Shown: positions 2,841-64,000 of the stretch, one piece after another
How the letters are laid out: each line of letters opens with the position of its first letter
How positions within the stretch are numbered: position 1 is the first letter of the stretch
From: Gordius sp. MW1
Lineage: Eukaryota > Nematomorpha > Gordioida > Gordea > Gordiidae
NCBI GenBank assembly: GCA_964036665.1
Contig: OZ038529.1
Location: 10,090,501 to 10,154,500, forward strand
Length of the DNA stretch: 64,000 nucleotides
Reading direction: 5' to 3'
Made by a program: the position numbers and the translations under genes
Notes under the pieces: model-generated
The model's input: the letters and a program-made list of their open reading frames with translations, nothing else
Databases searched by the model: none
What the model was told of the DNA's origin: nothing

Positions 2841-4875
2841 ACTCGGGCCTTCGGCCCTCGTGGGAAGGGGGAGAAGGGAAGGGGAGTAGGGGAAGGGAAG
2901 AGGGGAAGGGGGAACTCTTCTATACTCCGTATAAACGTAGCATATTTGCTATGCAATTTATGGGCGAGAAAGGTGGGAAGGGGCGAGAATGCCTATAGGG
3001 GGTTTAGATGCAAAATAATTAGTTAATTAGTTATAGGCCCTTGTAGGGGAGGACATAGGGTAATTATCAATGTTAACCAATTCAAAAACGAAAAAAAATT
3101 TCGATTTATTTGGCCAATGGTCATTTTTTTATTGGTCAGTAGCCAGCGGACGGTCAAAAATTCATATTATCATTGGTATTAACATGAACAAATATTAATT
3201 TAATTTAAAAAAATTAAAAAAAATTTTGTCCCCTCCCAGACTTGAACCCCACACCTCCAATTCACAAGCCGGCGCTATAACCACTATACCACGCTGGCTT
3301 TAAAATAGTAGAAGTTATTATGTTATTTATATAGATAATGAAATAATAAAGTTGTGTTTTATGTTTAGAAAATCAATATATTTCGTCGGTCAGTAGCCAG
3401 CGGACGGTCAAAAAGTCATATTATCAATGGTATTAACAAAAACAAAATATTAATTTAATGTAAAAAAAAAAATTAAAAAAAAAAGTTTTTTTTTAGTTTT
3501 AAAAAAGGGCTAAATTCTTAAACTACCAGCCCGATTCGCTCGAAACTTTACCCGTAGGTGCCCAGGGCGGCCGGGGGTAAAATAACCTTTTCAGATTCCT
3601 AAAATACCTTTTCATTTTAAAAATATCGGACATTTCCCTGCCACACGTGCGGTGTAATATCTATGACACGTAGAAAAATTTTACTAATTATATAAACTTA
3701 CGCGCGCCATCTAATAAAGTACAATTCGTGTTTGAGTTTAATAGTAGATTCAATTTAATTAGAAATAACGGGCTATGATTATACCTTTGAAGGAGGTTTC
3801 GAATTTTGTGTTAGTTTCTATCGATATATTTTATCGTAAATTTGAATCTAATACCTATATTATTTTTTTAAATATTACTTTTTAGGTTTTCTATGAAATC
3901 ACAATCTAATTAAATGAAATATATTAACCCAATAAAAAAATATATAAGCATTTATAAGGTTAAAAATATATATTACATAGTTGGCTGGCTGTTAGACCAT
4001 CTATAATAAATTTTTAGGTTATATATAAAATTTGGCCAATGGTCATTTTTTTTCATTGGTAAGCAGCCAGGACACGGTAAAAGTGGATTTAAATTCATAA
4101 GTCAAAAAAAAAACGAAAAAAAAAATTTTCGAATCACATTTTGGCCAATGGTCATTTTTTTCCATTGGTCAGCAGCCAGGACACGGTAAAAGTGGATATA
4201 AATTCATAATAGTCAAAAAAAAAATTTCGAATTACATTTTGGCCAATGGTCATTTTTTCCCATTGGTCAGCAGCCAGGACACGGTAAAAGTGGATATAAA
4301 TTCATAATAGTCAAAAAAAACGAAAAAAAAAATTTCGAATCACATTTTGGCCAATGGTGATTTTTTTCCATTGGTCAGCAGCCAACGGACGGTTAAAAAG
4401 TCATAATAGCAATGGTAGTAACAGGAACAATCATAATAGTCAAAAAAAAAACGAAAAAATAAACTCGGATTCACATTTTGGCCAATGGTCATTTTTTCAT
4501 TGGTCAGCAGCCAGCGGACGGCCAAAAAGTCTTATTATCAATGATAGTAACAAGAACAATCATAAGAGTCGAAAAAAACTCCGGGATTCTAACCCCAAAA
4601 CTAGTTAAATTGCATAGCAATTACCAAAATTTAAATATAGATATACTTATGCATTAATTTAACGTAGCAATTAAAACCCGACCCCGCCCGAAAGCGAGGG
4701 AGATAGAGATGAGGGGTGGGGCACCTCTTGATAGAGATGAGGGGTGGGGCAACTCTTTCTCATGCATTTATTTAAAAAAGCGATAACCTAATATACCCAA
4801 TGCAAATAGATAGGGAGGGTAACGGACGACGGACGGACACCAAAAAACGATCCCATAAATTGCATAGCAATTAAT
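2841..4875 (+). mobile_element. Hairpin-ended minisatellite repeat element, copy A
   Basis: This copy interrupts the hAT transposase. The left end is an ACTCGGGCC stretch containing the perfect hairpin GGGCC-TTC-GGCCC. The right end contains the perfect hairpin ATTGC-ATA-GCAAT followed by TAAT. The same two ends delimit copies at 33494-34866, 34868-36957 and 41103-43028. Next to the left end is a GGGAAGGGGG-rich tract. The centre (about 4030-4590) is a tandem array of roughly 97-130-bp units. Each unit carries TTGGCCAATGG and CCATTGG facing each other, followed by an A-rich CAAAAAAAACG segment. No transposase is seen. Hairpin ends, lack of long inverted termini and head-to-tail copies suggest a Helitron/Helentron-related non-autonomous element, but neither 5' TC nor 3' CTRR is visible. 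Confidence 0.6.
3235..3300 (-). tRNA. tRNA-like remnant (pseudogene)
   Basis: The minus strand reads GGTATAGTGGTTATAG (A-box-like) followed about 35 nt later by GGTTCAAGTC (B-box-like), the spacing expected of a tRNA. The acceptor and T stems do not pair properly, so this is a decayed tRNA or a tRNA-derived fragment inside the repeat element. It is absent from the other copies of that repeat. Confidence 0.35.
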
Positions 4876-32100: not shown

Positions 32101-35100
32101 AAGCTACGCGAAGTCCAGCACACCAACCTGTGCCGATTTATTGCCGTAGCCTTTGATTTGCCAAAAATATATGTTTTGATGGAACATTGTAATAAGGGGA
32201 CCCTTCAAGTAATGTGAATTAAGTTGTAATATAAAAAGATTTTGTATTAATTATAATAAAACAACTTTTTATTGATTAGGCCATAATTAAGAATGAATCA
32301 TTTCAAATGGATATGGAAATGAAGACTGCATTTATAAGGGACATTGCCGCCGTAAAATATATTGTATTTTTAGTTAATGATTATAGGGAATGTTGTACTT
32401 GCATTTGACCCCAATTTCGTTTCACGGCAATCTGAGGTCGGGCGAATGTTTTCTAGATTCCCGATTCTCTGTAAAGTTATCAGGATTTGGTTTAAATAGT
32501 ATAAGAGAATTGGAAATTAATGATGACTCTGAATTGGAATACCAACTAAGTATTAATATATACAATTTTTTAATGAAAAGCTATAAAATGTGTGAATTTG
32601 TTTAGAGAAAATATGGATGGCACCCGAAATTATTAGATCTGACTATCACATTGTGGGAACCAGAGAAGGTGATGTATATAGTTTTGGTGTAATTATGCAA
32701 GAAATATTAATGCGGTGTGCTCCGTATCAAACGCCAAACAACGCTGATAAGTTTAACATTACAGAGCCATTAGGTAATAACAACTTGGATAGATATTGAA
32801 TCTTGTAAACAATATTAGTTTCGAAAAATAGTTTCATTTATGAACATTTTTATTAAATTAAGTGATATTATTAAAATGATAACTGAGACATTATAATATA
32901 CTACTAACCTTTGCTCAATTACTATAGTTATAATAGCTAAAGTCAAAGGCTTCCATGATCCACCTTTTAGGCCTGTGATTGGATCTAGCGATCAACTTGA
33001 AATTCCTAATGCTTGGATTAATTTGGCCAAAAGTTGTTGGGAAGAAAACCCAGACTTTAGACCCACGTTCCAACAAATCAATGCCAACATAAAAAAAATG
33101 AACAAGTCTTTTTTGTTGATAGCTCTGTTATTATTATTATATAATATAAGACACAATTGTAATAAATTGTGTTATTTTAATGGGCGATTTGACCAAGTCT
33201 ATAATATTTTTACAAAGGGGGAAGGATGATAATGTGGTAGATAGCTTATTAAAGAGGATGGAACTATACGCTAATAATTTGGAACTTTTGGTCGAAGAAC
33301 GGACTAGCGCTTATGTCGAACAAAAGAAAAAAGCCGATAATTTATTATATCGCATAATGCCCGAGTACGTTGAATATTTTATGATAAAATAATCATATTT
33401 TTATTTCCCAAGTTTTCTATTTCAAAAAATGCAGATTGTGAATAATAAGAATTTTATATAGTGCGCGATCATTTAACTTGGTGTAAGATAAATATTAATT
33501 GCTATGCAATTTATGGGCTCGTTTTTTGGTGTCCGTCCGTCCGTCCGTCGTCCGTTACCCTCCCTATCTATTTGCATTGGGTATATTAGGTTATCGCTTT
33601 TTTAAATTAATGCATGAGAAAGAGGTGCCCCACCCCTCATCTCTATCTCCCTTGCTGTGTTATTTTTTAAATTAATGCATAAGAGGTCCCCCACCCCTCA
33701 TCTCTATCTCCCTCGGTGTGTTATATATAAGATTTGTTAAATTATCTATTATATAATAAACATAAATAAAAGTTGTTTACTTTTAATGCTATGCAATTTA
33801 ACTAGTTATATAATAAACATAAATAAAAGTTGTTTACTTTTTAATTGCTATGCAATTTAACTAGTTTTGGGGTTAGAATCCCGGAGTTTTTTTGACTCTT
33901 ATGATTGTTCTTGTTACTATCATTGATAATAAGACTTTTTGGCCGTCCGTTGGCTGCTGACCAATGAAAAAAATGACCATTGGCCAGAATGTGAATCCGA
34001 GTTTATTTTTTCGTTTTTTTTTGACTATTATGATTGCTTGTTACTACCATTGCTATTATCACTTTTTGGCCGTCCGCTGGCTCCTGACCGATGGAAAAAA
34101 TGACCATTGGCCAAAATGTGAATCGAAATTATTTTTTTCGTTTTTTTTCTGACTATTATGATTGTTCCTGTTCCTACCATTGCTATTATGACTTTTTGGC
34201 CGTCCGCTGGCTGCTGACCAATGGAATAAAATGACCATTGGCCAAAATGTGATTCGAAAATTTTTTTTTCGTTTTTTTTTACTCTTATGAATTTATATCC
34301 ACTTTTACCGTGTGCTGGCTGCTGACCAATGGAAAAAAATGACCATTGGCCAAAGTGAGCATCAAAATTTTTTTTCCCGTTTTTTTGGCTATCATTGACT
34401 TATAGAGTATCTGTTGGTACTGACCAATAGAGAAAAAGTGACCATTGGCCAAATTTTTGATTTTTTTAATTAAAAATTGTTCAAATTCAACAAAAAATTT
34501 ATCCCAACAATTCTGCAAATTCTTAACATTGTGTATGTTTTATAATATAATGTTTGTTAGACCCATAATCACTAAAGGCCATAAAAACTAATGTAATACG
34601 CAACTAGATGCAAACACTAAATCTAACCCTAACCCTTGCCTATATTACATTTTGCCTATAATGGAAAATTTGTATAAATAATTAATTAATCATTAGGCAT
34701 TTAATACCCCCCTATAGGCATTCTCGCCCCTTCCCACCTTTCTCGCCCATAAATTGCATAGCAAATATGATACATTTATACGAAGTACAGATGAGTCGTC
34801 CCCCCTTCCCTTCCCCTCTTCCCTTCCCTTCTCCCCCTTCCCACGAGGGCCGAAGGCCCGAGTTTTCATTAATTGCTATGCAATTTATGGGCTCGTTTTT
34901 TGGTGTCCGTCCGTCGTCCGTCCGTTGTATCCTCCCTATCTATTTGCATTGGGTATATTAGGTTATCGCTTTTTTAAATTAATGCATGAGAAAGAGGTGC
35001 CCCACCCCTCATCTCTATCTCCCTCGCTGTGTTATTTTTTAAATTAATGCATAAGAGGTGCCCCACCCCTCATCTCTATCTCCCTCGCTTTCGGGCGGGG

Positions 35101-38100
35101 TCGGGTTTTAATTGCTACGTTAAATTAATGCATAAGTATATCTATTCGTTTTTGAATTGAGTAACGTCGATATTAATTGCTATAATTACCCTATGCCCTC
35201 CACTACAAGAGTTTGGGTTAGAATCTCGGAGTTTTTTTAGACTCTTATGATTGTTCTTGTTACTACCATTATTAATAAGACTTTTTGGCCGTCTGCTGAC
35301 CAATGAAAAAAATGACCATTGGCCAAAATGTGAATCCAAGTTTCTTTTTTCTTTTTTTTGACTATTATGATTGTTCCTGTTACTACCATTGCTAATACGA
35401 CTTTTCGGCCGTCCACTGGCTGCTGATTAAAGAAAAAATGACCATTGGCCAAAATGTGAATCCAAGTTTATTTTTTCGTTTTTTTTTTGACTATTATGAT
35501 TGTTCCTGTTACTACCATTGCTATTATGACTTTTTGTCCGTCTGCTGGCTGCTGACCAATGAAAAAAATGACCATTGGCCAAAATGTGAATCCAAGTTTA
35601 TTTTTTCGTTTTTTTTTGATTATTATGATTGTTCCTGTTACTACCATTGCTATTATGACTTTTTGGCCGTCCGCTGGCTGCTGACCGATGGAAAAAATGA
35701 TTGGTCAAAATGTGATTCCAAGTTTTTTTTTCGTTTTAGTTTTGACTATTACGATTGTTCTTGTTACTATCATTGATAATAAGACTTTTTGGCCGTCCGC
35801 TGGCTGCTGACCAATGAAAAAAATGACCATTGGCCAAAATGTGAATCCGAGTTTATTTTTCCGTTTTTTTTGACTATTATGATTATTCCTGTTACTACCA
35901 TTGCGATTATGACTTTTGGCCGTCCGCTGGCTGCTGACCGATGGAAAAAATGACCATTGGCCAAAATGTGATTCCAAGTTTTTTTTTCGTTTTAGTTTTG
36001 ACCATTATGATTGTTTCTGTTACTACCATTGCTATTATGACTTTTTGGCCGTCTGCTGGCTGCTGACCAATGAAAAAAATGACCATTGGCCAAAATATGA
36101 ATCGAAATTATTTTTTTCGTTTTTGACTATTATGATTGTTCCTGTTCCTACCATTGCTATTATGACTTTTTGGCCGTCCGCTGGCTGCTGACCAATGGAA
36201 TAAAATGACCATTGGCCAAAATGTGATTCGAAAATTTTTTTTTCGTTTTTTTTTGACTATTATGAATTTATATCCACTTTTACCGTGTCCTGGCTGCTGA
36301 CCAATGGAATAAAATGACCATTGGCCAAAATGTGATTTGAAAATTTTTTTTTCGTTTTTTTTACTCTTATGAATTTATATCCATTTTTACCGTGTGCTAG
36401 CTGCTGACCGATGGAAAAAAATGACCATTGGCCAAAGTGAGCATCAAATTTTTTTTCCCGTTTTTTTGGCTATCATTGACTTATAGAGTATCTGTTGGTA
36501 CTGACCAATGGAGAAAAAATGACCATTCGCCAAATTTTTGATTTTTGTAATTAAAAATTGTTCAAATTCAACAAAAATTTCTCCCAGCAATTCTGCAAAT
36601 TCTTAACATTGTGATGTTTTATAATATAATGTTTGTTAGACCCATAATCACTAAAGGCCGTAAAAACTAATGTAATACGCAACTAGATGCAAACACTAAA
36701 TCTAACCCTAACCCTTGCCTATATTACATTTTGCCTATATTACATTTTGCCTATAAATGGAAAATTTGTATAAATAATTAATTAATCATTAGGCATTTAA
36801 TACCCCCCTATAGGCATTCTCGCCCCTTCCCACCTTTCTCGCCCATAAATTGCATAGCAAATATGATACATTTATACGAAGTAAAGATGAGTCGTCCCCC
36901 CTTCTCCCCTCCCCTTCTCCCCTCCCCCTTCCAACGAGGGCCGAAGGCCCGAGTTTTTTATATATTGTATTATTTAGAATTACAAAGGAAACAATTTTGA
37001 TTTTAAAAGTTGAATAATAAAATGATCAACTATATGATAGTTTCCAATTTTATACATGAAAATATACATATAATTTAGTTGAGTGCGATTATGACTTTTA
37101 AAGTCAAGTTTAATCAATCAATTTTACAATGATGAACTTTATAACCTTGATTTTTGAAAGAATAAAAGTGATGAAAGCCGTAATATTTTTAATTATTGAT
37201 CAAATAAGGCTAAGTATTTAAATGTTAATTTTAAAAGCAATGTTAAAAATAATAACTTGCCCCAATAATATATTCTAGAGATTAGAGAAAAACAAAAATG
37301 CTAATAGTATTTGAATCCATTGATATATCATTATGTATAAGTTATTCAATGGAATCTAATAAAGATATCAATATAAACCACTCTTTAAGTAATGCAAATA
37401 CTTGTTTATTAATGTTTAGATCAGTGGCAGAAAAACTGAAATCGGGTTTGACTGTTGAACCGATAACCTATGAAGGTGTGACGATATATTTTAGTGACAT
37501 TGTGGGATTTACTTCAATGTCATCCGAAAGCACGCCATTCGAAGTATTTATATAAGTTGTCAATGAATAATTTTCAGTTTTACATCATAAACATAAAAGA
37601 ACACATTTAGGTTAATTATTTTTCGAAATTAAACATCATTTTATGATTTTCGAATCTCATCTACACCTTTAGAAAGTGATTCTCTTTGGCTAATGTTTTT
37701 AGTATTTGACCCAGGTTTTTTGGCCGTAAATCAACAATCTCAGATAGAGTCTCTTAACGTAGATAACCATTTAGCCCAATTGAAAATATCGTAAGTTTCT
37801 TGCAAACGTCGGAGGTTTTGTTTTAACTTAAGTAATATGTGTAACTCAGCAAAGACGTTACGTCCTTTAAGCTGTCTACATAAATTCTATAACCATTTTA
37901 GTCTCCAAATTTAAAAAAATAACTAAAAACATTTTTTACTAATTTTTAATTTGGATTTAATTTCGCAACATATTGTATTCATTAATCTTGCAATTGGTAT
38001 ATTTACATTGAATGACAATATTTTAGAAAATAAACATTATATACTATAGGTTGTTACGTTTTTGAACGACCTATACACTTGTTTCGATAGCATTTTATCG

Positions 38101-41100: not shown

Positions 41101-44100
41101 AAACTCGGGCCTTCGGCCCTCGTGGGAAGGGGGAGAAGGGAAGGGAAGAGGGGAAGGGAAGGGGGGACGACTCATCTTTACTTCGTATAAATGTATCATA
41201 TTTGCTATGCAATTTATGGGCGAGAAAGGTGGGAAGGGGCGAGAATGCCTATAGGGGGGTATTAAATGCCTAATGATTAATTAATCATTTATACAAATTT
41301 TCCAATATAGGCAAAATGTAATAAAGGCAAAATGTAATAAAGGCAAAATGTAATATAGGCAAGGGTTAGGGTTAGATTTAGTGTTTGCATCTAGTTGCGT
41401 ATTACATTAGTTTTTATGGCCTTTAGTGATTATGGGTCTAACAAACATTATATTATAAAACAACACAATGTTAAGAATCTGCAGAATTGTTGGGAGAAAT
41501 TTTTTGTTGAATTTGAACAATTTTTAATTAAAAAAATCAAAAATTTGGCCAATCGTCACTTTTTCTCTATTGGTCAGTACCAACAGATACTCTATAAGTC
41601 AATGATAGCCAAAAAAACGGAAAAAAAAATTTGATGCTCACTTTGGCCAATGGTCATTTTTTTCCATTGGTCAGCAGCCAGCACACGGTAAAAGTGGATA
41701 TAAATTCATAAGAGTAAAAAAAACGAAAAAAAAATTTTCGAATCACATTTTGGCCAATGGTCATTTTTTTTCATTGGTCAGCAGCCAGGACACGGTAAAA
41801 GTGGATATAAATTCATAATAGTCAAAAAAAAACGAAAAAAAAGTTTTCGAATCACATTTTGGCCAATGGTCATTTTATTCCATTGGTCAGCAGCCAGCGG
41901 ACGGCCAAAAAGTCATAATAGCAATGGTAGGAACAGGAACAATCATAATAGTCAAAAAAAAACGAAAAAAATAATTTCGATTCATATTTTGGCCAATGGT
42001 CATTTTTTCCATAGGTCAGGAGCCAGCGGACGGCCAAAAAGTCATAATAGCAATGGTAGTAACAGGAACAATCATAATAGTCAAAAAATACGAAAAAATA
42101 AACTCGGATTCACATTTTGGCCAATGGTCATTTTTTTCATTGGTCAGCAGCCAACGGACGGCCAAAAAGTCTTATTATCAATGATAGTAACAAGAACAAT
42201 CATAAGAGTCAAAAAAACTCCGGGATTCTAACCCAAAAACTAATTAAATTGCATAGCAATTAAAAGTAAACAACTTTTATTTATGTTTATTATATAACAT
42301 TGGTCAGCAGCCAGCGGACGGCCAAAAAGTCATAATAGCAATGGTAGAAACAGGAACAATCATAATAGTCAAAAAAAAACGAAAATAATAATTTCGATTC
42401 ACATTTTGGCCAATGGTCATTTTTTTCATTGGTCAGCAGCCAGCGGACGGCCAAAAATTCTTATAATCAATGATAGTAACAAGAACAATCATAAGAGTCA
42501 AAAAAAACTTCGGGATTCTAACCCCAAAACTAGTTAAATTGCATAACAATTAAAAAGTAAACAACTTTTATTTATGTTTATTATATAACTAATTAAATCG
42601 CATAGCATTAAAAGTAAACAACTTTTATCTATGTTTATTATATAACAAAAACTAGTTAAATTGCATAGCAATTAAAAGTAAACAACTTTTATTTATGTTT
42701 ATTATATAACTAGTTAAATTGCATAGCAATTAAAAGTAAACAACTTTTATTTATGTTTATTATATAAAATTAATAAAATTAAACAATAATAAAACAAGCG
42801 GACGACCAAAAAGTCATATTATCAATGGGGCACCTCTTATGCATTAATTTAAAAAATAACACACCGAGGGAGATAGAGATGAGGGGTGGGGCACCTCTTT
42901 CTTATGCATTAATTTAAAAAAGCGATAACCTAATATACCCAATGCAAATAGATAGGGAGGGTAACGGACAACGGACGGACAACGGACGGACACCAAAAAA
43001 CAAGCCCATAAATTGCATAGCAATTAATATGAAAGGTTAGGATAATAAAAACATTTTAACGGGGTAAGCAGGTTTTGGACATTATGTCTACACTGGCAAA
43101 CCTAAATACACACTCTTTCATCCAATTCCATTCAAAAAAGAGAAACATAAGAGATCCATCGAATTTTTAGTCTAGCAGAACTTATATATTAAAAATTAAA
43201 GTATTGATTAATGTTTATAAGTATAAATTCTGCTATGTTTTGCCAAGGCAGCAATAGCTCATGGCCTACACTTTTTAAAGGTTACGCAGATTCTCTAAAC
43301 GTTCCAATCATTTAGGATAAACGAGTGATGTCAACGTTTTGGTTAATCGGAGAGAAAGATGAAGCCGGAAAATTTATTACGTTCGACATGAAAACGGTGA
43401 GAACACTCCACGCCGCTCCAACCCGAATTTCTGCTATGCCAAGTGGCAAGTGCTCTGGTAGGGTAGGAGGCCAAAGTCATGTTAGATTCCCGCCCACAGA
43501 TACCCCCGTTTCTATGGGTCACAACAAAAGATTCCTTAGGTAAAATGTATTTGCATTTAAAATTAAATTTCAATGATTCTTAATAATCTCTCTCTCCTAA
43601 TACCAATCAGTAATTTGCACATTTAATTGTTAATTTATTCTAAATTATTTTCTTCCTTTCATTCATCACGACTTTTTATTTTTACTACCTATTAGTGTTA
43701 GCATATAATAATTTAAATTCTTTATTAAATAATAAGGCTAGGGAGGGGACACTAACGAACAAAGACAAAGCGATTACATATGTATTTATGTTATCATCTG
43801 GTTTTTACCAACTCGGCTTTGGCTTACAATATTATTAAAATATATAATCATAGCAAAAATATATTCTGTAGAAAATGTTAGACAAATAAAAGTTATACTA
43901 ACTTAAACTATTCTTCTTTCACGTATTCACATATACAACGACCTATTTCCAATTTTTCTGCTATCTCAAATACATCTTTGACACTTGTCAAATTTAAAAT
44001 TAGCACAATATAAATAAGGATATAATGGCGAAACTCGTATAATATTTTCATAAACATTTATAAGGAATACCGAAAAGGGTGAGGGTGAAGAACGTAAAGC

Positions 44101-57670: not shown

Positions 57671-58290
57671 AGTAAAAAAAATGAAAAAGATAGCATTTTA
57701 AATCAATATATAATCTTGAAACAGATTTGTGTATACTAAATCGATTTTGGTGTGGGAAAAGAAATAGAATAGTAATTTTTATAATTTCGATATTTTTAAA
57801 AATAACATCTTGAGTTATAAACAAGAATAAGGATAACCTTGTAAATGCAATCACGAAAAGATGATGGTATGTCTAAAATAAAAACAAAAAAGTGCCAAGT
57901 GTTAACCGCATCTCGTTTTTATTACAATTTGTTCACTATTGTTGTCTGCTTTGTGCCGGTCTATGCTAGTAGTAATGCATGATAATTAGTTTAGAGCAAA
58001 AAACTTAAGCAGCTCTATGTAATTCCTTCAATAGGAAGTCACGTTTGAAATAGACAAATTAAATACCTATCAAAATTTTTACTTAAGGAAGCAAAATAAA
58101 ATAACTCTAGCAAAAATTATTCTACTCATATCAATAATTGACTACATAGCCCGACCCATATGAAACAATGATAAGCTAGTTGGTAACAAAGCAAACAACA
58201 AATGGTCAAATGACAAAATATCATGAAAACATAAAGATCCTTTTTTCTCGACCAATCAGGACGCGCTGTGCTTTACCGTTTATTTTAAAG

Positions 58291-58490
58291 GCACCCGGTC
58301 AAAGTAGCAGAAAAATAGCAGCCAAATTAGTCAGTTAGCGTCAGGATTCATCATGTTAAGGTTAGGGTTCTGGTTAGGGTTAGGAATACATCAGAAATTC
58401 CCTCCCCATTTGAGATTTAATTCTAATCTCTTGATTATCTAAAAAAATATTTTTCTGCTATTTTTTCATCATTCTGCTACTTTGACGGGT
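58291..58490 (+). mobile_element. MITE with telomere-like core, copy 2
   Basis: Best-preserved plus-strand copy. Ends are GCACCCGGTCAAAGTAGCAG and CTGCTACTTTGACGGGT, inverted with respect to each other. The core has GGTTAGGGTTCTGGTTAGGG and the TCCCTCCCCATTTGAGATTT block. Confidence 0.72.
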
Positions 58491-58557
58491 ATCGTTATGT
58501 CTAGGTAACTAGCTTGAATTGGTGAACGAACAAATTATCAAATGACAAATAAACTTA

Positions 58558-58856
58558 GACTAATAAAACCATAGACTGCCGAACAGCTGATAATTTTACA
58601 GCAAATATAGCAAGCGCCATTTTGTGGGAAATTGCAACCAAACAGTAGAATTCAGCGAAATTTATTGTTCTAATTTACTTATTTTGTTTTATTTATAAAT
58701 TAAGTTATTAGTCTTATTTATTTTCTTCAATATTTTATCGTGGAGAGTATAAATATACCTGTTGTTTAATTTTTCCTACAATACGGCAGCTATTTTGGTG
58801 TCTGAATGATTCTAATGTAAAAATCAGCTGTTCGGCAGTCTATGGTTTTATTAGTC
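58558..58856. mobile_element. 299-bp MITE of Tc1/mariner type
   Basis: The inverted ends share GACTAATAAAACCATAGACT and continue with GCCGAACAGCTGAT for over 30 bp in total. The element is flanked by TA on both sides (58556-58557, 58857-58858), as in Tc1/mariner elements. The interior is AT-rich without a frame. Confidence 0.72.
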
Positions 58857-59007
58857 TATGCAAATAAATGACTATGAGATGCATTAAGATACATATTAAA
58901 ATCATTAATAAATAAGTGTATTGTAAAACTAAACTAAGAAGTCATGGTATAATTTATGCACATTTTTATAACGTTGATGTCATAATATAATTAATAAAGT
59001 AGATTAT

Positions 59008-59282
59008 TGTGGAGGATAATTGACGAAATGTAACTTACGCTTAAGTTCTATCATACTGGTGGAGTAAAAGTCAACGCAACAGATGGCATTATCTTCCTTA
59101 TCGCGTGATATCGCGTGATTTCCTTATCGCGTGATATATATAGTTTTTATCGCGATTATTCTCATATCATTTATATATTCGTCGCGCGCGTTTATCGCGG
59201 AGTTTGGGTAAATAAAATCGTGTAGACTATAACATTCTCGAGGCTCACAAGTCGAGTTGACTATAACATTGTGAGCTCAACA
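59008..59282 (+). repeat. 5' LTR
   Basis: Starts TGTGGAGGATAATTGACG and ends GTGAGCTCAACA. It includes three direct ATCGCGTGAT repeats at 59098-59140. Confidence 0.9.
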
Positions 59283-59326
59283 TTTGGCGTCGTGAGAACC
59301 TACCGGGAAATAAATCAAAAGAGGGA

Positions 59327-60562
59327 ATGGATCGGAACATTATGGATTTATTCCGGTTATCCGATGATATTGAAACATTCCTAATTCAATTCGAGGCCAA
59401 TATAAAGGCGCAATCAGGGACGTTATCGGATACCCAGAAAACGTGCAGATTCCTAAGTTCGTTATCGGCGGAGGCATTTAAGGTTATCGCGGACGACGCG
59501 TACCCGGATAACCCTACTGAATGGACTTTCGAGGAAGCGACCAAGAGGGCAAGGAGAGTATTTAAAGGGCATACCTGCCCGCTGGCGCAGAGATTCAGGT
59601 TTGGAAATATTCGTCAAATGCCCGGGGAGGAACTCATGCGTTATATTCGAAGGCTAAAAGAGGCATCAAAGGACTGCGGTTTTCAGCCCGGGGAATTATC
59701 GGCCAGAACTCTCGATCAGCTGATTCTAGGGCTCTACGACCCAACGGTGCAAGCCGCGTTGATGGCCGAAAAGGACCTCAAATGGGACAAGGCCATGGAA
59801 ATCGCCCTAGGTCGGGAGGCAATCGGCGAAGGCCTAAGGACTATGCACCAGCCAGGGGACGAGGCATTTGCGGTCGACGCGACGAGGACGGGCCCGAGTA
59901 TGACCAGGTTCGGCCATGCATTAGATATTTTGACCATTGATTTATATGTTAATAACACCTTGATAACTTTTCTTATGGACACGGGCTCCACCGTTACAAT
60001 CGTGCCGGCTAACTTGTGGAAGGAGCGTTTACCGGTGCAAACAAACCCGATACCTTCCGTACATGCGTTCGGCGGCAAGGAGATAAAGATTATCGGGGAC
60101 GTAACAGCCGAGGCCCGTCTAGGTTCCACCCGGAAGCGCCTGCCGCTGTTAGTGGCGGATGTAAAGGGACCGCCTTTACTCGGAACGAACTGGATAAAAG
60201 AGTTCGGAAAAAACGTATGGGAGCTAGCCAAATGGAATTCGCGAACCGTCATGGAGCGCTACATAGTGAATTTCGTCGAGGCGAAGGCCCCGGAAGAGCC
60301 GAGTCCTCGGGATTCCGTGAGTATTGGAAGTCAATGTGGTGAATTGCCTCCGTTCGGTGCGGGCCCAAGGGCCAGCCCACCCGGTAGCTGGAGTTTTCCA
60401 CCCGTCGTAATGCCGGGCCCAGTTGGTTGCCCAGGCCATCAGCAAATCGGTTTGATTGGTCAGGTACCACAACAACCAAGCGTCGTACCACCAGCGCAAG
60501 CGGTTTCTAGTGTCCCGAGCTCAGCATCTCAGCGACAATCTGTATCCACTCAACCCCAATAA
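59327..60562 (+). CDS. Gag-protease polyprotein of the LTR element
   Basis: An intact 411-codon frame starts 45 bp after the 5' LTR. Residues about 1-190 form a retrotransposon capsid (QMPGEELMRYIRRLKEASKD, LDQLILGLYDPTVQAALM). The aspartic protease follows, with FLMDTGSTVTIVP as active site and LLGTNWI as flap-side motif. No zinc knuckle is seen between them. The last 90 residues are Pro/Gly/Ser/Gln-rich and may mark the deletion scar. The frame overlaps the next one (+1) at 60456-60562. Confidence 0.85.
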   Translation: MDRNIMDLFRLSDDIETFLIQFEANIKAQSGTLSDTQKTCRFLSSLSAEAFKVIADDAYPDNPTEWTFEEATKRARRVFKGHTCPLAQRFRFGNIRQMPGEELMRYIRRLKEASKDCGFQPGELSARTLDQLILGLYDPTVQAALMAEKDLKWDKAMEIALGREAIGEGLRTMHQPGDEAFAVDATRTGPSMTRFGHALDILTIDLYVNNTLITFLMDTGSTVTIVPANLWKERLPVQTNPIPSVHAFGGKEIKIIGDVTAEARLGSTRKRLPLLVADVKGPPLLGTNWIKEFGKNVWELAKWNSRTVMERYIVNFVEAKAPEEPSPRDSVSIGSQCGELPPFGAGPRASPPGSWSFPPVVMPGPVGCPGHQQIGLIGQVPQQPSVVPPAQAVSSVPSSASQRQSVSTQPQ

Positions 60563-61370
60563 GCCTGGCGCTAAGAACGCGACACCGGACCAAGATCGAG
60601 GTCAAGCCATGGCTGCCATCAAGGCTAAGGATAACGCAGCCAAATTTCGGTCGAGACGATCAAGCAAGCGTGCTTTCCAAGTTACCGAAGAGGGACTAGA
60701 GGATTCCGCGAACGCGTTTATCTCACGGAACGTGATACGCCAGTACGCCGCCAACGACGAGACATTACGGCAGCGCAAAGAGTGGAGTAAGGGTACGCGC
60801 GAAACAACAGTAGTGGTCGGGCCAAGGCGACACTACAAAAGGTACCTACCTAAGCTGCACGAGTCAAGGGAAGCGTTAAGAGAACCTGTGGCCCCCCAGT
60901 GGAGAGATACAGGAAAGGCGCGAGGGTTCGACGTCGGAGACCCAGTGTGGGTGCGTATGTTCCTGGGGCCCGATAAATGGGTGAAGGGCACCATTAGTGC
61001 CAAGCGCGAGGCGCGCTCGTTCGGCGTTAGGGCCCTAGGGAGAAACCACCATCGACATTTAGAGCAGGTGAGACGAAGGAAAATATTGGACTGGAGAAGG
61101 GTTGGACACGAAAATGGTTGGCCGCACCGGGATACACTAGCGAACGAGCCAATTGATGCGAGCCCGTGCCAACAACGTCCAATCAAGGGTCCCCTACCAA
61201 GGTTCCGAACGAAAATGCCGCTACAGGAGCGGGGGGAACACGAAGTCCTTCCCATGGCTCCGGAGTTTAGCAACGCCCCGCCTGAAGTTAGATACCGCCA
61301 GGTACGACAGGCCCCGAGCTACCTAAGGCACTATCTTTGTGAAAAGAGGGGAAGTGTGGAGGATAATTGA
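60563..61370 (+). CDS. Residual integrase C-terminal region (+1 frame)
   Basis: Open in the +1 frame relative to gag-protease from 60456. It contains FDVGDPVWVRMFLGPDKWVKG, the GPY/F-type module found at the C-terminus of gypsy integrases. The rest is basic and unassigned. The stop lies inside the 3' LTR. Expression would need frameshifting, and the product would have no catalytic core. Confidence 0.65.
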
Positions 61371-61634
61371 CGAAATGTAACTTACGCTTAAGTTCTATCA
61401 TACTGGTGGAGTAAAAGTCAACGCAACAGATGGCATTATCTTCCTTATCGCGTGATATCGCGTGATTTCCTTATCGCGTGATATATATAGTTTTTATCGC
61501 GATTATTCTCATATCATTTATATATTCGTCGCGCGCGTTGGAATTATCGCGGAGTTTGGGTAAATAAAGTCGTGTAGACTATAACATTCTCGAGGCTCAC
61601 AAGTCGAGTTGACTATAACATTGTGAGCTCAACA
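61355..61634 (+). repeat. 3' LTR
   Basis: Nearly identical to 59008-59282. It carries a 5-bp insertion after GCGCGCGTT and a G for A in AAATAAARTCG. Confidence 0.9.
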
Positions 61635-61867
61635 ATTATAATGGCAGATCTTTAATGATATAGATGAAGTATTTTAGCCAATTAAGTTACAGATTTATGT
61701 ACGATTCTATAATACAATATAATAGATATAATATAATATAATAAAAACTTAAATTATATGATATTTATTGTATAATATTTATTTAAATTGTATTATATAA
61801 TCGCCTACGTACAAGATTCTCAAAAGACGAGTCAGATAAAGTAGGCTATAATAGCAAATCTTTACGA

Positions 61868-61890
61868 CTTCTTCTTCTTCTTTATCAGTT
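61868..61890 (-). repeat. Truncated 3' tail of the RTE-like LINE
   Basis: The reverse complement, AACTGATAAAGAAGAAGAAG, is the 3' end of the LINE at 26735-29804. Only the tail is present, as in a severely 5'-truncated insertion. Confidence 0.55.
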
Positions 61891-62105
61891 ATGTAGTTGA
61901 GGCAGAGGCACCATCTATATTATATAAAATGTAAATGTATAAAGATAAAAATGTTACTTTTATAAAAAATGTTTAAGAACAAACTTACAAATTCTAATTG
62001 ACAGTGATATACTCATAAACGCTATTTTTATACACAGGTTTATTTTTTGGAGATAAACTAGAGTATAAGTTTGACATATCTCACTTCATAAATTTAAAAT
62101 AGAAT

Positions 62106-62305
62106 ACCCGTCAAAGTAGCAGAATGATGAAAAGTAGCAGAAAAATAATTTTTAGGTAATCAAGATATTAGAATTAAATCTCAAATGGGGAGGGAATTTT
62201 TGATGTATTTCTAACCCTAACCACAACCCTAACAATCTTGATGAAACCTGACGACGATATCTGACCAATTTGGTTGCGATTTTTCTGCTACTTTGACCGG
62301 GTGCC
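62106..62305 (-). mobile_element. MITE with telomere-like core, copy 3
   Basis: Inverted copy of 58291-58490, with both termini preserved (ACCCGTCAAAGTAGCAGAAT and CTACTTTGACCGGGTGCC). Its core has CTAACCCTAACC followed by CTAAC. Confidence 0.72.
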
Positions 62306-62565
62306 GACATAACTATTTTGATTGGATAAAATAGCTAAATTTCAAGTTTTGAACTAATCAACTTTACTTCTGATTTATAAAGTATCATATAATTACTATA
62401 CAAATCTTTAAAAAAATATTGTTATTAAATAAAAATGTTAGCTAGCGATAATCATTCTGTAATCCATATTATTTTTTGAAGTTTATTTTAGTTAATATTG
62501 ATATACATATATAATTTTTCCTTACTCTTTTTTAGGTATAAGCAAACTTTAGCTTAAATATTTAC

Positions 62566-64000
62566 ATGTATCGATCACGAGCTGGTAGGACTTATACGCA
62601 GCCTTATCCCTATGTGCGGTATTGTAATTTCTCTGAATTTGACATTGAGGGAGTGAAAGCTGCATTAGAGGAAAGTAAGAAAAAGGGATCAGTTCTAGGT
62701 TCATTCGAAAATGATATGAGCCATCTTGCATTTTTATGTGCCCGTGAAGGAACAAATCTCAAAAAAATTACTGTCAAAAAGTCGCGCAGATTGGCAAATG
62801 AACGTGCACAAACTGAACTAAGAACATTGCTCAGTTTAATCAAACATTACACTATTGTACAAATACCTAAGACAACTACTGATATCACATTATGGAGGCT
62901 AGGGGCTCTTTTTTGTAAAGAAGTTAGTTTTCCCTTAATTTTTTTGTATTATTTAAGACCAAGTTAGATGATTTATTTTAGCCTGTGTAATAATTATGCA
63001 TCAATAAATAACTTAATATGTCATAATTATATGCATATATTTGAAATTTAGATTTGTTCATTCTTCCACGAAGGCAAGATAATGCCATTTCTTACACAAG
63101 AACAATTAGGTCTTGCGACAACTGGTGGTTTTCCAGCAGCCATGATGCATCTTAGCTTTGGTCAATTCATACCCTCTAATTCAGTTGTATCTGATGAAAA
63201 TTATCAAAATAATGCAGCCAATGCTAGATCTCCTACCCAAAATTTGGAGCCAAATATTGGAGATGCTAACAGCACCACCACAACTTCAAATGTAGAATTA
63301 TGTACCCCATTACATCCTTTTAATCGGACCAAAAAAGAAAGCAAAAGGAAAGAGCCCAATAAAGCTTCACTATCACCTGAAGATTATGAATGTTTATACT
63401 ATGGCTATGCCTATCATCAAAAGATTTTTTACCAAGTATTAACCTCAACTACTAAGGGCCGCTGTCCTAAAAATCGAAAAACTTTGAAGCCTGCAAAGGA
63501 TATTTTGAACTATTTAGATGAACAAATAGCTTATCCAGTCATGACTGATCTTGAGAAAATACAAGTAATGACTCTATAACATTTTATCTGACATTCATCC
63601 CCATTTTTATGTCTCAATTAGGTCATAATATAAAATTTTAGTTGCTCATTAAGAATCTATTGTTTATCTAATTTTTTTAATATTTCATAATACCCAATTT
63701 ATTTTTGTAGTATTTGGAGAAGCTTAAAATACTTGTCAAGTGTGATTCAATAGAAGAAGATGAGAGTTTTGAGGGTCGTACAATGTATTATTTAGAAAGT
63801 ACAGTAAAATTTGCACTTAAAAGGTGTAAAGATGCCTGGCTAGCACAAACCCCTCAAACCGATGATCAAAATGGGGTTTTATTGGCATTTGAACTTGTTG
63901 ATGTTTATTAAGATATTCATGTATCATGCCATTTTAGTTGTTATATTACATAACCATACTCTTATTTTAGGCATTTCACACAATTTTATACCATTATTTC
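62566..64000 (+). CDS. Spliced gene with a phlebovirus-like nucleoprotein domain (candidate endogenous viral gene), 3' end beyond window
   Basis: Exons 62566-62922, 63052-63564, 63711-63902 and 63971 onward are joined by GT-AG introns of 129, 146 and 68 nt, all in phase 0. Residues 1-160 resemble the RNA-binding nucleoprotein of phleboviruses and tenuiviruses: DITLWRLGALF (106-116) and GGFPAAMMHLSFGQFI (144-159) fall in the order and spacing of that fold. A Ser/Thr/Asn-rich insert (about 162-226) separates this from a helical stretch (DYECLYYGYAYHQKIF) that fits the viral C-terminal helices. Exon 3 onward (EGRTMYYLESTVKFALK) matches nothing I know. The first ATG is the start of the open frame. 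Intron 3 uses a weak GTTTAT donor; otherwise the protein stops at 63911. A host gene of chance similarity is the alternative. Confidence 0.55.

What the first reader, a model, noticed from the sequence alone, without database searches (positions are those of the whole stretch)
62566..64000. Intron-containing gene with a phlebovirus-like nucleoprotein domain
Seen: three in-phase introns with consensus splice sites split an open reading frame that has no stops. Known: nucleoproteins of phlebovirus/tenuivirus-type RNA viruses share a compact helical fold with an aromatic-A-M-M-H-x-S-F motif, and fragments of such genes occur as endogenous viral elements in invertebrates. Inference: a captured nucleoprotein gene gained introns, a 65-residue low-complexity insert inside the domain and an extra C-terminal region. 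That points to long host retention and possible domestication, for example as an antiviral RNA-binding protein, rather than a fresh decayed insertion.
Basis: partly seen in the sequence, partly recalled or inferred. Interest (0 to 1): 0.85.

Follow-up and report, generated by a model that had tools for sequence, protein, structure and literature searches.

The report
Virus-derived nucleoprotein gene with introns
An animal chromosome carries a gene that descends from the RNA-coating protein of a bunyavirus relative, is interrupted by two apparent introns, and looks as if natural selection keeps it working, which suggests the animal has put an old virus gene to use.

Summary
Open exons lie at 62566-62922, 63052-63564 and 63711-63911; introns 1 and 2 have GT/AG ends. 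The third intron is doubtful: a stop at 63909-63911 ends the frame here and in the duplicate copy. Descent from phenuivirus (phlebovirus/bandavirus) nucleoprotein N is supported for the N-lobe. Tenui_N matches exon 1 (E 0.0015, below the curated cut-off). Exon 1 plus the start of exon 2, scored in register against viral and host N-like sequences, beat all 2000 shuffles. Motif spacing across intron 1 is 39 residues, against 38 in a solved virus N. C-lobe homology was not shown; exon folds failed.

New here: four further N-like loci in this genome: a broken duplicate with the same introns (C8), an intact intronless gene (C3), a decayed relative (C3) and a frame-broken intronless element (C4). 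C4 and C3 carry a low-complexity linker at the same place, so the insert is probably not host-made. Window gene against broken duplicate: dN/dS about 0.40 (P 0.002). Most likely a domesticated viral nucleoprotein whose own domain gained introns; an antiviral role is only inferred.

The parts
62566..62922 (+). Exon 1, 119 codons from ATG; part of the N-lobe of a phenuivirus-like nucleoprotein (residues 38-117 match Tenui_N positions 41-113)
   Evidence: Open frame; Pfam Tenui_N E 0.0015, 18.6 bits against cut-off 25; HMM of the three other N-like loci, reached by 0 of 3000 shuffles, 2679 of which were scored
62923..63051 (+). Intron 1, 129 bases, phase 0, interrupts the N-lobe
   Evidence: GT/AG ends, G+C 0.21, two stops in the exon frame, same ends in the C8 copy; the only other copy found in the genome is C8; the intronless N-like gene on C3 is continuous across this region
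63052..63564 (+). Exon 2, 171 codons; begins with the motif region FPxxMMxxxFGxxIP
   Evidence: Open frame; first 43 residues against a solved N segment (9umz_A), best at residues 27-42, reached by 1 of 5000 shuffles; against the host-family HMM alone not significant, 540 of 3000
63181..63360 (+).
   Evidence: Sequence; similar stretch at the same place in the C4 and C3 N-like loci; 7.2% different between copies against 2.3% for 63052-63180
63565..63710 (+). Intron 2, 146 bases, phase 0
   Evidence: GT/AG ends, G+C 0.23, five stops in the exon frame, ends kept in C8; the only other copy found is C8
63711..63911 (+). Exon 3 and stop codon TAA at 63909-63911; presumed end of the C-terminal part
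   Evidence: Open frame, stop kept in C8
63903..63970 (+).
   Evidence: Weak donor GTTTAT; in-frame TAA six bases in, kept in both copies
62534..62535 (+). AG after a T-run about 30 bases before the ATG, kept in C8: possible acceptor of an upstream leader intron or trans-splice site
   Evidence: Seen by eye in the sequence; not tested
58290..62305 (.). Terminal-inverted-repeat element with a nested short LTR element (59008-61637), ending about 260 bases before the ATG; not found in the C8 copy

Best explanation
The gene at 62566-63911 is an endogenous viral element derived from the nucleoprotein (N) gene of a phenuivirus-like negative-strand RNA virus. It has been retained long enough to gain two spliceosomal introns inside the viral domain, to be duplicated with its flanks to another chromosome, and to stay under protein-level purifying selection, while the duplicate decayed. 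Shown here: N-lobe homology, the open exons, the shared introns, the duplication and dN/dS below 1. Inferred: that it is transcribed and spliced, and that the protein still works as an N-like RNA-binding or oligomerising protein. The most likely use, with perhaps one chance in three, is interference: a host-made N that binds viral RNA or joins the N chains of related viruses and poisons their ribonucleoproteins.
For: Tenui_N is the best Pfam match of exon 1; of 9 decoys (1 reversal, 8 shuffles) one gave a match, to another model at E 0.074. An HMM of the N-lobes of the three other N-like loci: 0 of 3000 shuffles of exon 1 reach the observed score (2679 scored). That family is itself N-like: the C4 locus matches Tenui_N at E 2.8e-5, 24.3 of 25 bits, and solved N 3ouo at E 0.011; the profile of the three matches solved N 4j4r at E 0.00096. 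Exon 2 start against a solved N segment: 1 of 5000 shuffles. Both together, in register: observed 52.3, shuffle mean 25.3, sd 3.3, 0 of 2000; 17 control pieces of other window ORFs reach at most 36.3. Motif spacing is 39 residues across the intron against 38 in the virus. dN/dS against C8 is 0.40, P 0.002; introns differ at about 10%, exons at about 5%. Introns are kept in C8.
Against: No single search passes a curated cut-off (18.6 of 25 bits). A second, unrelated model (DUF3175, E 0.0033) matches the same residues. In the C8 exon 1 piece only DUF3175 was found, though that piece stops before the best-matching residues. Genome-wide Tenui_N does not list the window locus. phmmer of exon 1, exon 2 and the exon 2 start finds no N chain. 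Exon 1 against one virus N alone is 112 of 5000; whole exon 2, 16 of 5000; exon 3, 4168 of 5000. Against the HMMs of the other loci the exon 2 start is not significant (540 of 3000), nor are whole exon 2 and exon 3 (819 and 797 of 2000). hhalign gives probabilities of only 6.3 and 0.7%, and BLASTP of exon 1 against single loci only E 0.02-0.03. A chain test over all three exons gives 4 of 600. The C-terminal parts show no link to the family C-lobe (202 of 1000). Both exon folds (pLDDT 43 and 40) say nothing. No transcript or orthologue evidence. dN/dS rests on one pair. A mobile element about 260 bases upstream may have disturbed the promoter.
Confidence: 0.62

Rival explanations
1. A neutral, ageing endogenous viral element: N-derived but without function, its open frame a matter of luck or youth, and its 'introns' AT-rich insertions.
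For: Three other N-like loci in the genome are broken (C8, second C3 locus, C4); no expression data; transposon insertion just upstream.
Against: Introns differ at about 10% between the copies while amino-acid-changing sites differ at about 4%. The window copy has no frame break, while C8 has stops and frame shifts after the same time. Both insertions have GT/AG ends, and the protein register fits viral N across intron 1.
Confidence: 0.17
2. The locus works as RNA, not protein: an N-derived source of piRNAs or siRNAs against related viruses, as proposed for many arthropod EVEs.
For: Proposed role of EVEs in arthropods (abstract start of PMC10675110; passages of PMC10636211); transposons nearby.
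Against: A small-RNA source needs no open frame, yet amino-acid-changing differences are depleted relative to silent ones, and introns would serve no evident purpose.
Confidence: 0.1
3. A cellular gene unrelated to viral N; the weak matches are chance on a helical, lysine-rich protein.
For: Sub-threshold Pfam score and competing DUF3175 match, no C-lobe match, no PDB nucleoprotein match by exon, exon 2 start not significant against the host-family HMM.
Against: Joint register test 0 of 2000. Exon 1 and the exon 2 start match separately and in the right order. Same-genome N-like loci align in the same register.
Confidence: 0.07

Closest known systems
Phenuivirus nucleoprotein (Pfam PF05733 Tenui_N; solved N chains 4j4r, 9umz, 3ouo, 3lyf; virus names recalled)
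   Same: N-lobe order and spacing: ITxxR helix, then [YF]PxxMMxxxFGxxIP 38-39 residues later
   Different: Chromosomal, two introns inside the domain, long N/S/T-rich linker after the motif; C-lobe not recognisable; score under the family cut-off
Phlebovirus-like N elements of ticks (passages of PMC2987831 and PMC10675110)
   Same: N genes of phlebovirus relatives integrated in an animal genome, more than one lineage
   Different: Introns are not mentioned in PMC10675110 (0 occurrences) and not in the passages of PMC2987831 seen. Here one member has introns and a selection signal
Bornavirus-like nucleoprotein genes of afrotherians, EBLN (passages of PMC4982594)
   Same: Viral N kept under negative selection (average dN/dS 0.34), with introns and loci duplicated at the DNA level
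   Different: Another virus order. There the EBLN is embedded in exon 2 and exon 1 with its donor came from a neighbouring gene; a second intron in some splice variants may touch the EBLN (not clear from the passages). Here both introns interrupt the virus-derived frame and match nothing else in the genome but C8
Toti-like and other EVE genes of planthoppers and aphids (passages of PMC10636211 and PMC11978097)
   Same: Virus-derived genes with exon-intron structure, proposed or shown to be co-opted
   Different: There the EVEs lie within the last exon; here the virus-derived domain itself is split

Membership tests
Phenuivirus nucleoprotein (Tenui_N) | Match to the Pfam model above its curated cut-off | tested here: not met
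   18.6 bits against 25 for exon 1; no Tenui_N match for exons 2 and 3. Not filed as a formal member; called a distant homologue
Phenuivirus nucleoprotein (Tenui_N) | N-lobe motifs in conserved order and spacing | tested here: met
   Joint register test 0 of 2000 shuffles; spacing 39 against 38
Phenuivirus nucleoprotein (Tenui_N) | C-lobe present | tested here: inconclusive
   202 of 1000 shuffles reach the score; no match. The C-lobe of the C4 locus finds the two C3 loci only at E 0.17 and 6.9
Phenuivirus nucleoprotein (Tenui_N) | Two-lobed helical N fold | tested here: inconclusive
   Single-exon models with pLDDT 43 and 40; not used for a fold search
Phenuivirus nucleoprotein (Tenui_N) | RNA binding and oligomerisation | not testable with these tools
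   Needs protein work
Endogenous viral element | Viral gene in a host chromosome with host flanks | tested here: met
   Lies on contig C3 (25.9 Mb) of a 12-contig genome; 4 of 4 contig starts examined are TTAGGG-type telomere repeat; the flanks carry mobile elements and share a duplication with C8
Domesticated (co-opted) viral gene | Intact coding capacity under purifying selection | tested here: met
   No stop in 356 codons read exon by exon; dN/dS 0.40 against the broken duplicate, P 0.002. One pair only
Domesticated (co-opted) viral gene | Expression and splicing | not testable with these tools
Domesticated (co-opted) viral gene | Orthologues in related species at the same place | not testable with these tools

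The most novel reading that the evidence does not exclude
A phenuivirus-type nucleoprotein has become a true spliced animal gene: introns arose inside the viral domain after capture, rather than by fusion to a host exon, and the protein is kept by selection as part of a small family of N-like genes (one more intact, three broken) fed by repeated captures. It would be an animal-encoded N-like protein that can act against, or mimic, bunyavirus ribonucleoproteins.
Probability: 0.45. Interest if true: 0.78.

Novelty: new variant of a known kind. Interest (0 to 1): 0.62.

Why it matters
Co-opted nucleoproteins of RNA viruses are known (EBLN), but in the planthopper and aphid cases seen in passages here the EVE lies within the last exon, and in elephant it is embedded in exon 2 behind a borrowed first exon. 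A bunyavirus-type N whose own domain is split by introns and conserved by selection would mark the capture as old, show intron gain in a gene of known intronless origin, and offer a testable antiviral protein. The coexisting intact, decayed and spliced copies in one genome make the path from capture to gene observable.

Tried and rejected
Viral relatives: the search for related loci with exon 1 and with profile A1, and a DNA pattern for the MMH motif, against viral contigs gave no relative (the two pattern hits are contigs of 40.6 and 62.8 kb, too long for a bunyavirus segment, and were not pursued). PHROGs: nothing. Bunyavirus polymerase (PF04196) in the genome: none at E 1, but the control genomes also gave none, so absence is not shown. 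Structure: both exon models too poor, so no fold search was run. C-lobe: alignments made by eye looked tempting but failed shuffles and are dropped. Introns as mobile introner elements: rejected, no copy found other than C8. Host identity: genome size and contig lengths led to no genome note in the papers listed (20 of 1,320; 3 of 3, unrelated); the rRNA search did not complete. DUF3175: noted, not followed. Literature for an intron-split phenuivirus N gene: listings (1 of 1; 13 of 13; 25 of 38; 12 of 18; 20 of 1,660; 15 of 134) show none by title or abstract start; I read only passages of seven papers, so this is no proof of novelty.

Full report
What is in the sequence. The window is part of contig C3 (positions 10090501-10154500) of an unnamed 211.8 Mb, 12-contig genome. 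Four of four contig starts examined consist of CCCTAA repeats, so telomeres are of the TTAGGG type. The window also holds frames that I read as a receptor guanylate cyclase and an amino-acid transporter (names recalled, not searched), so I take it for an animal. In dinucleotide shuffles at least one of three frames is open in 0, 0 and 19 of 2000. I fetched the DNA beyond the window's end. The frame of exon 3 runs into TAA at 63909-63911, and an AATAAA lies at 64042. The duplicate on C8 has the same stop, so I end the gene at 63911, with two introns and 356 codons.

Is it a viral nucleoprotein? Pfam gives Tenui_N as best match to exon 1, E 0.0015 and 18.6 bits, under the curated 25. Against it, DUF3175 matches the same residues at E 0.0033. 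Nine decoys (one reversal, eight shuffles) gave one match in all, at E 0.074 to another model. Exons 2 and 3 do not match Tenui_N, and phmmer against PDB finds no nucleoprotein with exon 1, exon 2 or the start of exon 2.

The genome search at a loose threshold turned up a better match than the window gene: C4:7130449-7130700 scores 24.2 bits with Tenui_N (E 2.8e-5, just under the cut-off of 25). By phmmer all eight of its PDB matches are nucleoprotein or nucleocapsid chains (best 3ouo, E 0.011). With it as query, two further loci on C3 appear. One is an intact, intronless 330-codon frame at C3:4295804-4296793, which by itself matches neither Pfam nor PDB. The other, at C3:4311996-4312841, is 43% identical to that and has three in-frame stops. 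A profile of N-lobe pieces of the three loci (A1) finds solved N chains 9umz and 4j4r at E about 0.001, over 108 profile positions that include the motif PxxMxxxxFxxLIP region (that these are bandavirus N is recalled).

Back to the window gene. Against an HMM of those three N-lobes, 0 of 3000 shuffles of exon 1 reach the observed score (2679 scored); the exon 2 start alone is not significant there (540 of 3000). hhalign against A1 gives P 0.006 for exon 1 and 0.08 for the exon 2 start, both in the right place but with low probabilities (6.3 and 0.7%). The exon 2 start, FPAAMMHLSFGQFIP, against the 9umz_A segment YPPEMMCMAFGSLIP: 1 of 5000 shuffles. Exon 1 against the same segment: 112 of 5000; whole exon 2: 16 of 5000; exon 3: 4168 of 5000. 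From the ITxxR helix to this motif the virus has 38 residues; the window gene has 39, counted across intron 1. A joint score of exon 1 and the exon 2 start against a four-sequence profile (three host loci and the virus segment), demanding this order and a spacing within 10 residues, gives 52.3 against a shuffle mean of 25.3 (sd 3.3), 0 of 2000 at or above. Seventeen control pieces from four other ORFs of the window reach at most 36.3; a fifth control ORF was too short to score. An earlier chain test over all three exons, without the spacing demand, gave 4 of 600. I take N-lobe homology as established. The C-terminal part is another matter: no test linked it to the C-lobe of the other loci (202 of 1000 shuffles). 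The C4 locus's C-lobe itself finds the two C3 loci only at E 0.17 and 6.9, so this neither helps nor hurts much. Structure prediction of exons 1 and 2, one by one, failed (pLDDT 43 and 40).

The insert. The N/S/T-rich stretch after the motif is not peculiar to this gene. The C4 locus has a longer one and the intact C3 gene a shorter K/N/Q-rich one, between the same landmarks. C4 is frame-broken and shows no intron, the usual look of an EVE. The linker therefore probably belonged to the viral N, or at least to the family, before intron gain.

Introns and age. Introns 1 and 2 fall within the coding sequence, intron 1 within its virus-like N-lobe. The intact C3 gene runs without interruption through the region of intron 1. 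No copies of the introns were found elsewhere except at C8, so they do not look like recent mobile introners. C8:31859811-31861426 is a duplicate with flanks on both sides and the same intron ends. It has two in-frame stops, small gaps of 2, 1 and 1 bases, and a 286-base insertion in exon 2. Between the two copies introns differ at 9.6% and 10.6%, the 5' flank at 12.1% and the 3' flank at 14.6%, exons at 4.7-6.0%. By Nei-Gojobori-style counting there are 22 silent and 34 replacement differences over 224.8 and 825.2 sites (350 codons): dS 0.105, dN 0.042, ratio 0.40, Fisher P 0.002. By region the uncorrected ratio is 0.34 for the N-lobe part, 0.45 for the linker and 0.51 for the C-terminal part. 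If C8 had evolved neutrally since the duplication, it alone should have contributed about dN 0.05. The total is below that, so the window copy has hardly changed, and C8 was probably constrained for a time. This rests on one pair of sequences; gene conversion is not excluded.

Surroundings. Just upstream (58290-62305) lies an element with terminal inverted repeats and a short LTR element nested in it (LTRs about 59008-59285 and 61355-61637), whose frame matches aspartyl protease and, below its cut-off, PNMA models. It has no match in the C8 region, so it came after the duplication or was lost there. It ends about 260 bases before the ATG and could have changed the promoter. An AG after a T-run at 62534-62535, kept in C8, could be an upstream splice acceptor.

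How it may work. Shown: a conserved coding gene with an N-lobe of viral descent. Inferred from the known biology of phenuivirus N (recalled): N coats genomic RNA as chains through an exchanged arm and an RNA cleft. A host-made N could bind RNA or insert into the chains of related viruses and block them. A new, non-viral role, as suggested for elephant EBLN at the rough endoplasmic reticulum (passages of PMC4982594), is equally open. I give interference about one in three.

Comparison and novelty. Phlebovirus-like N elements are known in ticks (passages of PMC2987831; PMC10675110). Co-opted N genes under selection are known for bornavirus in afrotherians (dN/dS 0.34; passages of PMC4982594); a second intron in some of their splice variants may touch the EBLN, which the passages do not settle. 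EVE genes with exon-intron structure are known in planthoppers and aphids, but there the EVE sits within the last exon (passages of PMC10636211 and PMC11978097). I saw no case of a phenuivirus-like N split by introns within its own domain in the listings, several of which were capped; I read none of those papers in full. I therefore rate it a new variant of a known kind.

Noticed in passing
G000:C3:4295804-4296793 (L020:1291-2283): Intact intronless 330-codon N-like gene, a second candidate for domestication or a younger capture; no direct Pfam or PDB match by itself, 43% identical to a decayed locus about 16 kb away, with matching DNA found only within the coding stretch.
   Followed up: partly
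G000:C4:7130243-7131460 (L015): Frame-broken phenuivirus-like N element, no intron seen, with a long S/N/T-rich linker.
   Followed up: partly
window 58290-62305: Inverted-repeat element of about 4 kb with a nested short LTR element whose LTRs are nearly identical (98-100% over the stretches compared).
   Followed up: partly
L008 (C8 copy), within exon 2: A 286-base insertion whose two ends look like inverted repeats by eye, as in a foldback element.
   Followed up: no
window 4300-4608, 34028-34399, 35396-35776, 41704-42231; also in L021 and L023: A dispersed tandem repeat, unit roughly 100-130 bases by eye, that stays open in frame (peptide like ANGHFFHWSAASGRPKSHN) occurs several times in the window and at other fetched loci.
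   Followed up: no
window 62662-62829: Exon 1 residues 33-88 also match DUF3175 at E 0.0033, and the C8 piece matches it at E 0.014. Probably chance.
   Followed up: no
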